Below are positions 18,501 through 24,500 of a DNA stretch of 64,000 bases, one piece after another; position 1 is the stretch's first letter; every line of letters starts with the position of its first letter. The notes beneath the pieces are model-generated. The model saw only the letters and a program-made list of their open reading frames with translations. It did no database searches and was not told the origin of the DNA. The stretch lies in the NCBI GenBank assembly GCA_949126835.1, contig OX421494.1:56672358-56736357 (forward strand), written 5' to 3'. This DNA comes from Anisus vortex. Lineage: Eukaryota; Mollusca; Gastropoda; Planorbidae. The translations under genes were made by a program, and so were the position numbers.

Positions 18501-21500
18501 TGAACACAATGAATAGAGCTATGTACAAGACAAATTGAACACAATGAATATAGCTATGTACAAGACAAATTGAACACAATGAATAGAGCTATGTACAAGA
18601 CAAATTGAACACAATGAATAGAGCTATGTACAAGACAAATTGAACACAATGAATAGAGCTATGTACAAGACAAATTGAACACAATGAATAGAGCTATGTA
18701 CAAGACAAATTGAACACAATGAATAGAGCTATGTACAAGACAAATTGAACACAATGAATAGAGCTATGTACAAGACAAATTGAACACAATGAATAGAGCT
18801 ATGTACAAGACAAATTGAACACAATGAATAGAGCTATGTACAAGACAAATTGAACACAATGAATAGAGCTATGTACAAGACAAATTGAACACAATGAATA
18901 TAGCTATGTACAAGACAAATTGAACACAATGAATAGAGCTATGTACAAGACAAATTGAACACAATGAATAGAGCTATGTACAAGACAAATTGAACACAAT
19001 GAATAGAGCTATGTACAAGACAAATTGAACACAATGAATAGAGCTATGTACAAGACAAATTGAACAAAATGGCTATAATTATGTATTATGTTTTCAGAAC
19101 CCACCTGTCTCTCCTGGTGATGGTGTGGTCCACAACAGTTCCTGGTGCTGGGTTGACCATTTGACCATTTCTTTCCTAAACAAAACAAAATATACTTCTG
19201 TAATTTCACATTAACAGTAGATAAAATGCAACAAAAATGTGGAGAACATAAGAGAGTTAAATTTATCTTTAAAAGTCAATCTAGTTTTCTTCAATACATA
19301 TCTATATATATATATATATAAAGTAAACTGTGTGTGTTTTCAACCAATCATATTAGTTTGTTTAAAGACACTTGACCTTATTTTCTCATATTAAACTTGT
19401 GTGCGATTTCACTGCGGACACGCATCCTCACTAGCTAAGTGGTTAACCTATCCATGTGGCTGACTCGGCTGGTCAATTTAGATTTTTGTTAAATAAAAAG
19501 ACTTTGTAATGAAATGGTTTATGATTGTTTATGAACACAATAGACCAAAATGCTGTACAGGATTATTTATTTAATAATTACTTGAACCATACGATTAGCC
19601 TTCAATCGTGAGGGACAGGAAGACAACGTGCATAAAATAAAAACACAGGAAGTGGACACAAATCTTAACTCTAATTAACGAAACATTCAGTGTCCAAATA
19701 CCGATACACAAGTTATCACTACATCTCCCCCTTTTACGTTTAGTCATTCCGATATCTGGCAGGTGGATTAATGATACGTCCAGACCGAGTTGTCAAAACC
19801 GTAGAGCCAACAGGTGGGCCATGCGCCTGCTCTTGGGGTTCAAGGTGGGTTTCAGTAGTGTTATTATCCGGTTCTTGAGGGTTGGTAAAACCTGGATCTC
19901 CTTGAGGTTGAGGCATGCCATTCTGTTGTTCAGTAACAATGGCATCGTCCTTGTCAGGTAGGGAACCGATAGAGGTAGGAACAAATGTTGATGTTGGACG
20001 TAAGTGTTTTCTGTTCCTACAGAAAGTCCCAAAAGAAGTCTTGATTAGATATGATCTGGGAGCCACGCTTCTGATTACAGTGGCTGGATTTGTCCATTGT
20101 CGCTCATGGTCTAGTTTCTGTAAGACCTTGGTACCTGGCTCTAAAGGTGGAAGCTTTCTAGTACCATGACGTCTGTTATAGTAGATCTGATTTGCCCTTT
20201 TCCTTCCTTCGTCCTTTCCAAGAATAGACTTTCTTTCTATGATTTTTGGAGAGAGATTGACTGGCAATGTTGGTAGGATAGTTCTGATTTTACGACCCAT
20301 CACTAACTCAGCGGGACTATACCCTGTGGCTGTAGTTGGTGATGATCTGTAGTTCATTAAAGCTAGAAAAAAGTCTGCTTGACTTAATATTTTCTTCGCT
20401 TCCTGCACTGCTCGTTCTGCCTCACCGTTGCTTTGGGCATAGTATGGCGAACTAGTAACGTGCAGGAAATTCCACTCTTCTGAAAACGTTTGGAATTCTC
20501 TGGAAGTAAATTGGCGACTGTTATCAGTGACTAGTGATTCCGGGATTCCATGATGTGCAAAAATGGATTTAAATTTAGTAATGACGACCCCTGAGGTCAT
20601 GCTAGAAAGTGGCAAGATCTCCAGATATCTCGAGTAGTAATCAACCACTACGAGATAATTCTGACCTTTGAAGTCACAAATGTCAGCACCGATCATCTGA
20701 AATGGTCTGCTGGGAAGTGGTGTTGACATGATGGGCTCTCTTCTGAAAGTTGGCATCTTCTGTTCACAATGTTGGCAAGAAGAAACGAGCTGCTGGATTT
20801 CGCCGCTAATTCCAGGCCACCATACAGACTGTTTCGCTCTCTCCCGACATTTTGTAATGCCCAAATGACCATCATGGATTCTGCTCAGAATTTCTGCTCT
20901 AAGTGACCTTGGTACTACTATTTGGGAACCTCTGATAAGCATGCCTTGATGAACGCTCAGTTCAAAGCGCACATTGTAGAAATCCTTGAGATATTGTTCA
21001 ATATTTTTCACATATTTAGGCCAGCCATTTTCAGTGTACTTGATGGCAGTATTAATGATAGGGTCTTTCTCTGATTCACTTGCAAACTGTAAAAGTTTCG
21101 CATCGGACGCCGGCCAAGACATTCGAACTGAGTCTATATGAGAGTCAATATCCTGAATGAGGCGATCCACTTCTTTGTCCAACCCAACGTTTACTTGTTG
21201 TGGGCTGCGCGACAGTGTATCAGCAATGATAAGTTGTACGCCTGGTATGTAAGTAGCATGAACATTAAAGCGCATGAGCCTTATAAGCATTCTCTGGCAA
21301 CGTATTGGTGTGTCTTGCAGGTCTCGAACATTGATCAAAGATATCAGTGGCTTGTGATCAGTCTGTAATGTGAATGATGGTAGCCCCATGAGGTACTTTT
21401 GAAGCTTTTCACAAGTCCATACTGCTGCCAAAAGTTCTTTTTCTATCTGCGCGTAATTCTTTTCTGCTGGAGTCAGGGTACGTGAGCAGAAAACCACAGG

Positions 21501-24500
21501 TTTGAGTTTACCTTCACATTCTTGAAGAAGCACTCCACCAATTCCATAGGAACTTGCATCAACGCTTACAACACATGGCCTTAAAATGTCAAAGAATGCA
21601 AGTGTTGGTGTAGATGTGAGCATTTTCTTTACCTGTGTAAGTGCATTTATTTGAGATGATCCCCATGTCCAATGGTTTTTCTTCTCCAACAATTGTGTCA
21701 GAGGACGAAGAATTGTGGATATGTTTGGAATGTATCTGCCCATGAAGTTTACCATGCCAAGTAGGCGACGTAACTCCTCAACATCTTGTGGCTCTGGCAT
21801 GTCAATAATAGCAGAAACCTTGATAGGATCTGGACTTATACCATCCTTACTGATGCGATGGCCCAGGAAATCAATTTCCTTCTTTCTGTACTCACACTTT
21901 TCTTGGTTTAGTTGAAGATTCACTTCATTCAGCCTTTTTAGAACTGCTGACAAGTGTTTTTCATGTTCTTTCTCTGTTTTACTAAAGACAAGAACATCAT
22001 CAAAATAGCAAATTACGTCTTGCTCTTTTTCCAGAATATTTTCCATCACCCTCTGGAAAATCTCAGGTGCACTTGTGATGCCAAATGGTAGCCTTTTATA
22101 ATAGTATCGACCAAAAGGTGTTATAAAGGTAGTCAGCTTTGCAGTGGAACTGTCTAAAGGAATTTGCCAAAATCCGGAAGCTGCATCCAATTTTGAGAAT
22201 ACTGTTGCACCTTGAAGCTTGTGTAGTATATCATCTAATACAGGAAGCACATAGCGTTCCCGCTTCACTGCAGAATTGAGCTTCTTAAAGTCTGTACAAA
22301 TACGAATTGATCCATTCTTCTTTAAGACTGGCACCATTGGAGCGCACCAATCTGTTGCTTCGGTAATAGGTTCTATTACGCCTGCTTTTTCCATCCGTTG
22401 TAGTTCAACCATGACCTTGTCAATAAGAGGTATTGGCACTCTCCTTGCTGTAGGTAAGCTGTATGGCTCAGCATCTTTGCGAATTTTAATGGTAACCGGA
22501 GTGCACTTTATGTGTGTAGATAAGTCAAGAGGAACTGCTGCTCCGATTTCATTGATATTTTTCTGCACAAGACCCAGGGCATTAACTACGCCTCTACCCA
22601 AAAGACTGTCAGTCTCCTCATTAATAACAAAAAGACGAATTTGAAACTTTTTGTTTTGGAATGTAGCTGGAGCAGTAAATTCTCCCAAGTTCTGTAAGAA
22701 ACCACCAGGACTTCGCAGAGTTGCAGCAGAATGAGTTAGTTTAGGACTAGGGCTTATCTTGTTATAAGTAGCTCTGGAAATAACACTAACATCAGCACCT
22801 GTGTCAATTTTAAAGTTAATTGGTAGATTGTGAATGTTAACTGTCACTCTCCATGGTGGCTCTGCAACTGTTGACAATATTGAGTCAAATGTGTATGACT
22901 GGGTAACTGTGTCATGATGCATAATACTGTGAACGTCACGATGTTGCTTTCGCTGACGACACACTGAGATGAAATGACCTAATTTACCACAGTGGCGACA
23001 CGACTTGCCCTTTGCTGGACAGGCTGTCTTGTAATGGGATTGTCCACAATTTCCACATTTCTTAACAAAGTTGGCTGATTCTCCTTTATGTGAGACGAAA
23101 GTATTTCCTGTACTTTCCCTCCTTGCACTTCCTTCTCCCTTCCCACCGATCGATTGTGAATAAGTCTGGCGACGCGGAGCGCCAAACCTGACTGAGTCCG
23201 TTGACAAACCTCGCTGGTCCAACAATTGTCCCTTCACCATCTCATAGTGCCTAGCTATTTCAACAGCAGCATCCAAAGTCAGGTCTCTCTGCAGCTGCAG
23301 TTTTTGTGAGATCTCCCTATCTGTGAGTCCCAGTACGAGTCGATCTCTGATACTGTCGCTTTTATCAGAGAACTCACAATAGGCTGCTAATTCATACAGT
23401 GTTCGTATATATTGTTCTACACTTTCGCCTTCCTTTTGGCTACAGGTGTAAAATTTGGCTCTCTCATGTATGATATTTCGTTTGGGTGTAAAGTAACTAT
23501 TGAATTTGCTTAGTATTAATTCAAAGTTTTCTTCAGGCCTGGATTGACCAGCCTCGAAAGTAAACGTAGAATAAATTTTTTCAGCATCTGCCCCCATTGC
23601 ATAGATAAGGCTGCTTACTTGTACTGAGCCTTCTTCCTTGTCAAGCTTAGTGGCCATTCTGAATCTTAAGAACCGTTCTCTCCACTCGGGCCACTTCGTA
23701 GGCGAACTGAAGTCGAATTGCTCTGGCGGGTGAAATTTAGCCATAATACTTCTGACACCATGTAATGAAATGGTTTATGATTGTTTATGAACACAATAGA
23801 CCAAAATGCTGTACAGGATTATTTATTTAATAATTACTTGAACCATACGATTAGCCTTCAATCGTGAGGGACAGGAAGACAACGTGCATAAAATAAAAAC
23901 ACAGGAAGTGGACACAAATCTTAACTCTAATTAACGAAACATTCAGTGTCCAAATACCGATACACAAGTTATCACTACAGACTTGCTTATTGTTTAACTG
24001 ATTACAATATTTATTTTCAATTACTTTCATAAATGTCTTCAGTAATAAAATTTAATTATTAGCTTTCTGTTCATTGTAGTTTTTACAATTTTTATCGGTA
24101 GCTTATACAGGCCTGTTTTATTTTCCCTCAGAGGAATTTTACTTGTCCTTAATAAATCAAATAAACTGCACAAAGTAGTTCTAATGAAGTGAAAAACATA
24201 TACATGGACATATAGTCACACAGGAATCAACATATGCATGGACATATAGTCACACAGGAATCCCCCCCAGCTTACCTTGCAGTAGATTCTTGTGTTGATT
24301 CTCTTCTGAACACAAACTGTGGAACAGCTGGGAGTGTAGTCACCGAAGCTGCCGAAGCAACGGTGCAGCTGCTTCACTTCATGGTCGGCCAAGACGTCCA
24401 ACTGCCCGTCGCCCACACCATCACGGAATATCACTATCTTCTCAGGAAGGAAGTGGTTCTCCTAGAGAGAATAGAGAAACATAAGCTAGAGCTAAGACAG

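What the first reader, a model, noticed from the sequence alone, without database searches (positions are those of the whole stretch)
19505..23979. Intact, recent Gypsy retrotransposon inside the piwi gene, in sense orientation
The element has LTRs identical by eye, a 5-bp target duplication (GACTT), a tRNA-Leu-type primer site, a polypurine tract and one uninterrupted 1334-aa Gag-Pol frame with all catalytic residues. It sits in intron 17 of a complete Piwi gene and points the same way. Piwi proteins silence such elements, so a potentially competent copy inside piwi may be transcribed with its own repressor. Whether this is neutral, a feedback sensor or a polymorphic insertion is open.
Basis: partly seen in the sequence, partly recalled or inferred. 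Interest (0 to 1): 0.75.

Follow-up and report, generated by a model that had tools for sequence, protein, structure and literature searches.

The report
Young retrotransposon in snail Piwil2 intron
A recently arrived, still-open copying element sits in an intron of a snail gene for a protein of the kind that normally silences such elements; the element is an ordinary kind, in a striking place.

Summary
At 19505-23979 (minus strand) lies a 4475-bp Ty3/Gypsy LTR retrotransposon: 219-bp LTRs identical base for base, target duplication GACTT, primer site TGGTGTCAGAAG, purine tract, one open 1334-aa Gag-Pol frame. It lies in sense orientation in an intron of an intact PIWI gene, 18 coding exons and 892 aa. 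Corrections: the gene groups with Ago3-type (PIWIL2) proteins, and by my model the intron is number 15. The host is a snail near Biomphalaria. The element looks like the Mag-lineage C-clade (SURL/Steamer-like), common in molluscs. The genome search listed 41 LTR matches, which I read as 22 places; 5 of 18 LTR-paired copies have a full-length frame. In 16 of 21 copies of the older repeat that it hit, the sequence runs uninterrupted across the site, so an assembly artefact is very unlikely. The gene's other introns hold further dispersed repeats. Most likely this is a recent, near-neutral intronic insertion that is spliced out. A mild effect on splicing or polyadenylation is possible, with a Drosophila piwi precedent; a piRNA feedback sensor is unsupported but testable.

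The parts
19505..23979 (-). Complete LTR retrotransposon (Ty3/Gypsy, C-clade-like), 4475 bp
23761..23979 (-). 5' LTR, 219 bp
   Evidence: identical to 3' LTR; AATAAA at 23822-23827
19505..19723 (-). 3' LTR, 219 bp
   Evidence: AATAAA at 19566-19571
23980..23984 (.). Target-site duplication GACTT, copy 1
19500..19504 (.). Target-site duplication GACTT, copy 2
23749..23760 (-). Primer binding site TGGTGTCAGAAG (tRNA-Leu type)
   Evidence: same 12 bases given for Steamer in PMC8905726 (passage)
19724..19735 (-). Polypurine tract
19740..23744 (-). Gag-Pol open frame, 1334 aa
21852..22325 (-). Reverse transcriptase domain (aa 474-631)
   Evidence: PF00078, 2.6e-36
21267..21665 (-). RNase H domain (aa 694-826)
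   Evidence: PF17919 and PF17917
20439..20915 (-). Integrase: H2C2 zinc-binding and core (aa 944-1102)
   Evidence: PF17921 and PF00665
15565..44508 (-). PIWI gene of the Ago3/PIWIL2 clade, 18 coding exons, 892 aa
19176..24275 (-). Intron 15, 5100 bp; 620 bp without the element and one TSD copy
24276..24461 (-). Exon 15 (upstream of the insertion)
19105..19175 (-). Exon 16 (downstream of the insertion)
23985..24128 (.). Older dispersed repeat hit by the insertion; it continues for about 30 bases beyond the junction, up to 19504
   Evidence: about 79-86% matches elsewhere in the genome; continuity over the junction

Best explanation
A recently active Ty3/Gypsy family of the Mag-lineage C-clade type (SURL/Steamer-like in the broad sense) inserted a full-length copy into an older dispersed repeat in intron 15 of the snail's Ago3/PIWIL2-type gene. 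Shown: the anatomy, the target duplication, the uninterrupted sequence in older repeat copies, sense orientation, the intact host frame, and many near-identical relatives. Inferred: the element is transcribed as part of the pre-mRNA and removed with intron 15, so the insertion is close to neutral, and it is young enough to be polymorphic. Any effect would most likely come from a 620-bp intron having become 5.1 kb with LTR polyadenylation signals in sense, which could modestly lower full-length Piwil2 mRNA.
For: LTR identity and TSD. Open frame and coding domains. Intact host frame, insertion away from both splice sites. The repeat next to the right flank continues over the insertion point into the left flank in 16 of 21 repeat copies (23-29 of 30 bases match, against about 15 at random places of the same loci; at most 3 of 200 controls reach it) (21 of the 45 other matches listed were looked at). 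41 LTR matches from 40 of 242 candidates scored. 14 of 18 LTR-paired copies, window included, have identical LTRs, and 16 of 18 show a 5-bp duplication. 5 of 18 have a frame of at least 1334 aa. 5 of 4000 internal bases are private to this copy. Dispersed repeats also lie in introns 1, 2, 3, 6, 7, 13, 14 and 17.
Against: No RNA, small-RNA or population data, so splicing-out, neutrality and polymorphism are inferred. A sense insertion with AATAAA could truncate transcripts before exons 16-18 (112 codons with the stop); but two AATAAA already lie in the intron upstream of the element. 5 of 21 repeat copies do not continue over the junction. Copies were chosen as best matches to the window's LTR, which favours young ones; 4 single-LTR places were not fetched.
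Confidence: 0.8

Rival explanations
1. The insertion is a mild loss-of-function allele: the lengthened intron and sense LTR signals cause intron retention, exon skipping or early polyadenylation, lowering Piwil2 and so helping transposons.
For: In the Drosophila melanogaster subgroup, TE remnants enlarge piwi intron 4, which lacks a good pyrimidine tract and needs the exon junction complex for splicing (PMC4197968, section 9 read). Intron 15 here is the longest of 17, and its longest pyrimidine run in the last 50 nt is 4, the lowest value, shared with introns 2 and 5.
Against: 11 of 17 introns of this gene have runs under 7, so a short run is usual here. Splice sites are intact in the model. 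No expression data.
Confidence: 0.15
2. A feedback sensor: antisense piRNAs against the family bind the element in nascent Piwil2 RNA and repress the gene, so silencing capacity regulates itself.
For: Sense orientation would expose target RNA to antisense piRNAs. piRNAs and a ping-pong signature, also on reads matching protein-coding genes, are reported in Lymnaea (PMC6128900, passages).
Against: No piRNA or chromatin data. The insertion is young, one of many, and sense by a one-in-two chance. The gene is Ago3/PIWIL2-type, while in flies it is Piwi that enters the nucleus and guides transcriptional silencing (PMC4197968, passage).
Confidence: 0.04
3. Assembly or collapse artefact joining a repeat into the gene.
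For: The family has many near-identical copies, which assemblers can misplace.
Against: Exact target duplication; repeat copies that run uninterrupted across the site in 16 of 21 cases; one exact place for the right flank. No reads were seen.
Confidence: 0.01

Closest known systems
C-clade (Mag lineage) Ty3/Gypsy retrotransposons of molluscs: SURL and Steamer-like elements
   Same: Same domain order; same 12-base primer site reported for Steamer (PMC8905726, passages); relatives labelled K02A2.6-like, as many Steamer-like elements are; C-clade called the most abundant Gypsy clade in molluscs (PMC6238403, abstract and passages).
   Different: LTR 219 bp beginning TGTAGTG; M. arenaria Steamer has 177 bp, and the Steamer-family LTRs described start TGTAACA. 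No clade tree with reference elements was run here.
TE remnants in piwi intron 4 of the Drosophila melanogaster subgroup
   Same: Transposon sequence lengthening an intron of a PIWI gene.
   Different: There: fragments, an intron of about 200-700 nt and a shown effect on splicing. Here: a complete recent element, a 5.1-kb intron, an Ago3/PIWIL2-type gene and no expression data.
Gag-Pol P0002 on a 4640-bp ENA contig of unnamed source
   Same: 97% identical over the whole protein.
   Different: 13 residues shorter, by a gap near the C terminus; organism unknown.

Membership tests
Ty3/Gypsy LTR retrotransposons | Pol order PR-RT-RNase H-integrase | tested here: met
Ty3/Gypsy LTR retrotransposons | LTR pair, primer site, purine tract, 5-bp target duplication | tested here: met
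C-clade (SURL/Steamer-like) | Primer site TGGTGTCAGAAG, complementary to tRNA-Leu | tested here: met
   sequence against text; no tRNA of this host was compared
C-clade (SURL/Steamer-like) | RT/RNase H falls in the C-clade in a tree with reference elements | not tested
   reference sequences not at hand; only names of relatives (K02A2.6-like)
Steamer family in the strict sense | Defined by phylogeny in PMC8905726 | not tested
   no reference tree was run
Steamer family in the strict sense | LTR starts with TGTAACA | tested here: not met
   starts TGTAGTG against the passage
Ago3/PIWIL2 clade of PIWI genes | Groups with Ago3-named arthropod proteins rather than vertebrate PIWIL1 | tested here: met
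   a 17-row branch (100/100) holds the window gene and all 4 Ago3-named rows and none of the 3 vertebrate PIWIL1 rows; no vertebrate PIWIL2 row was in the tree. Scores against solved structures alone hardly separate the two: PIWIL2 427, PIWIL1 421 bits
piRNA feedback control of a PIWI gene | Antisense piRNAs to the intronic element and a change in host transcription | not testable with these tools
   no RNA data

The most novel reading that the evidence does not exclude
The sense insertion makes the snail's Piwil2/Ago3 pre-mRNA a target of the piRNAs that this protein helps to make, giving the silencing pathway a recently acquired, transposon-built feedback on its own expression.
Probability: 0.04. 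Interest if true: 0.85.

Novelty: new member of a known kind. Interest (0 to 1): 0.36.

Why it matters
It is a natural experiment: an intact, recent transposon inside a gene of the transposon-silencing pathway. If the insertion is polymorphic, comparing snails with and without it would show directly whether a transposon in an intron of its own repressor changes that repressor's splicing, its dose or its piRNAs. If it is neutral, it is a useful example of how little such a placement means by itself.

Tried and rejected
Broken copy: the private change beside an integrase catalytic residue first looked like evidence of inactivation. Controls showed a similar load elsewhere: private changes 1 synonymous and 4 non-synonymous here, against 1-6 and 2-8 in the 17 others; 13 of 17 others have at least one at a site conserved in 85% or more. 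I do not claim the copy is dead or active.

Missing piwi exon: a first motif search found no exon with the expected PLL motif; a wider one found it at about 29.0 kb. A first splice run counted one exon twice and misplaced another, corrected.

First LTR comparison gave no clean duplication for L011; it has 21 further bases at the LTR end in both LTRs and a CACTT duplication. The two copies without a shown duplication are L017 (5' LTR matches only from base 9) and L024 (a third LTR follows).

Empty site: the first test used 3 repeat copies by BLAST; checked again with 21 copies and random-place controls, where 5 of 21 do not continue over the junction (L036, L042, L044, L045, L046).

ORF 29352-31313 (+), 653 aa, runs through a minisatellite and is not taken as a gene.

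Paper searches for a transposon inside a PIWI gene (all hits listed, 6, 1 and 12; 20 of 243 listed; I saw listings and starts of abstracts only) showed no earlier case of an intact LTR element in a PIWI gene; the library is partial. Physella acuta was my guess for the host; searches did not settle it.

Not done: number of integrase-lacking copies genome-wide, left flank (not completed), the 4 single-LTR places, genes around the other copies, host species.
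Full report
What is there. The element at 19505-23979 lies on the minus strand. Its two 219-bp LTRs are identical, it is flanked by GACTT on both sides, and it has a primer site and purine tract in the expected places. Its long frame, 19740-23744 (-), is open for 1334 aa, with Pfam matches to Gag (below the curated cut-off), protease, reverse transcriptase, RNase H and integrase. Read by eye, the protease, RT and integrase active-site motifs are present.

The host gene. A splice model built from the window gives 18 coding exons on the same strand, 44508 to 15565, encoding 892 aa without a stop. 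The best match in the protein search is Biomphalaria glabrata piwi, 75% over the whole length (best 120 of 606 listed). In a tree of 29 proteins the gene is sister to the Biomphalaria protein (100/99) and lies on a 17-row branch (100/100) with all four Ago3-named arthropod proteins, apart from the three vertebrate PIWIL1 rows. No vertebrate PIWIL2 row was in that tree, and scores against solved structures hardly separate the two kinds for this gene (PIWIL2 427, PIWIL1 421 bits). [quoted passage not shown] In this genome a tandem group on C13 is of the PIWIL1 kind: PIWIL1 499 against PIWIL2 406 bits, and by tree, with that row only half filled. No LTR, gag, RT or IN piece of the element was found in the 40 kb fetched there, nor in 10 kb at each of two other Argonaute loci.

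Position. The element occupies 4475 of 5100 bp of intron 15, 296 bp from the donor and 329 bp from the acceptor; without it and one duplication copy the intron would be 620 bp. Both LTRs carry AATAAA in sense; the intron also has one AATAAA inside the element and two upstream of it. Transcripts ending at the 5' LTR would lose exons 16-18, 112 codons with the stop.

The empty site. The right flank, 24000-24270, has one exact place in the assembly; its first 130 bases or so belong to a dispersed repeat (1539 first-look candidates, 40 scored, 46 matches listed). With the flanks joined and the element left out, the top three other places align across the junction at 80-83%. A wider check used 21 of the 45 other matches: in 16 of 21 the 30 bases left of the junction match the window's left flank at 23-29 positions, against about 15 at random places in the same loci, and at most 3 of 200 controls reach the observed value; in 5 of 21 they do not. 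The element therefore inserted into an older repeat, many of whose other copies keep the pre-insertion order.

The family. A search of the own genome with 201 bases of LTR scored 40 of 242 candidates and listed 41 matches, which I read as 18 LTR pairs and 4 single places, 22 in all; the tool calls such counts lower bounds. I fetched the 17 pairs other than the window's. Counting the window copy, 14 of 18 have identical LTRs and 16 of 18 show a 5-bp duplication. 5 of 18 have a frame of at least 1334 aa. Six copies share one deletion over the integrase (one of them with an edge 2 bp off in the alignment) and two share a second. The target duplications that could be read in these eight copies differ from each other, so integrase-lacking derivatives have spread, presumably with integrase from intact copies.

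Age. Zero differences in 219 bp allow up to 1.4% LTR divergence (95%), so LTR identity alone is a weak clock. A tighter bound: 5 of 4000 internal bases are found in none of the 17 other copies (0.125%, 95% range 0.04-0.29%), and some of these may predate insertion. Pooled over 17 copies (L017 left out) there are 3 LTR substitutions in about 3733 bp. With assumed rates of 2e-9 to 1e-8 per site per year (recalled, not measured for this host), 0.125% is about 0.1-0.6 million years. The copies were chosen by similarity to the window's LTR, which favours young ones.

Is it surprising? The gene is 28,944 of 863,417,759 bp. With 22 to 242 insertions placed at random (an illustrative range, since 242 are unscored candidates), 0.0007 to 0.008 are expected in it. 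That is small for this gene, but the finding was picked afterwards, many genes would have been remarked on, and many other transposon families exist. Matches within the window alone show dispersed repeats in introns 1, 2, 3, 6, 7, 13, 14 and 17. Sense orientation is a one-in-two event.

Mechanism. I judge a recent, near-neutral intronic insertion most likely (0.8). The best-founded rival is a mild effect on splicing or 3' end formation: in the Drosophila melanogaster subgroup, TE remnants lengthen piwi intron 4, and its splicing depends on the exon junction complex (PMC4197968, section 9 read; passages). Intron 15 has only a 4-base pyrimidine run near its acceptor, but 11 of 17 introns of this gene have runs under 7. 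A feedback sensor would need piRNAs that I cannot see.

Kinship. The primer site is letter for letter the one described for Steamer (PMC8905726, passages), relatives carry the K02A2.6-like label that many Steamer-like elements get (best 120 of 3476 listed), and the C-clade is called the most abundant mollusc Gypsy clade (PMC6238403, abstract and passages). The LTR start differs from the Steamer family's, and no reference tree was run, so I file it as C-clade-like. Other paper contact: PMC8462715 (outline and abstract) links Piwi and a non-LTR element in Biomphalaria; PMC3587641 (passages).

Noticed in passing
L010, L013, L016, L017, L019, L025 and L018, L024: Two integrase-deleted derivatives of the family, one in 6 and one in 2 of the 17 other copies; 4 of the 6 have a single 1117-aa frame. 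They appear to have spread without their own integrase.
   Followed up: partly
G000:C13:34319652-34352860 (L026-L029): Tandem PIWIL1-clade genes, two with many exons and one seen only by C-terminal exons (L027); a further diverged PIWI-like gene lies on the 285-kb contig C41 (L031).
   Followed up: partly
16999-19071: 35-bp minisatellite, 59 copies, filling most of piwi intron 16; the window holds many such arrays.
   Followed up: no
29433-31177: 27-bp array in piwi intron 7 that yields a 653-aa plus-strand frame, taken as spurious.
   Followed up: partly
15964-16479 and 37003-37517: 91% identical dispersed repeat in piwi introns 17 and 3.
   Followed up: no
L011: LTR variant with 21 extra bases at its end, in both LTRs.
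   Followed up: partly
P0002: 97% identical Gag-Pol on a 4640-bp ENA contig of unnamed source; same species or transfer between species cannot be told.
   Followed up: no
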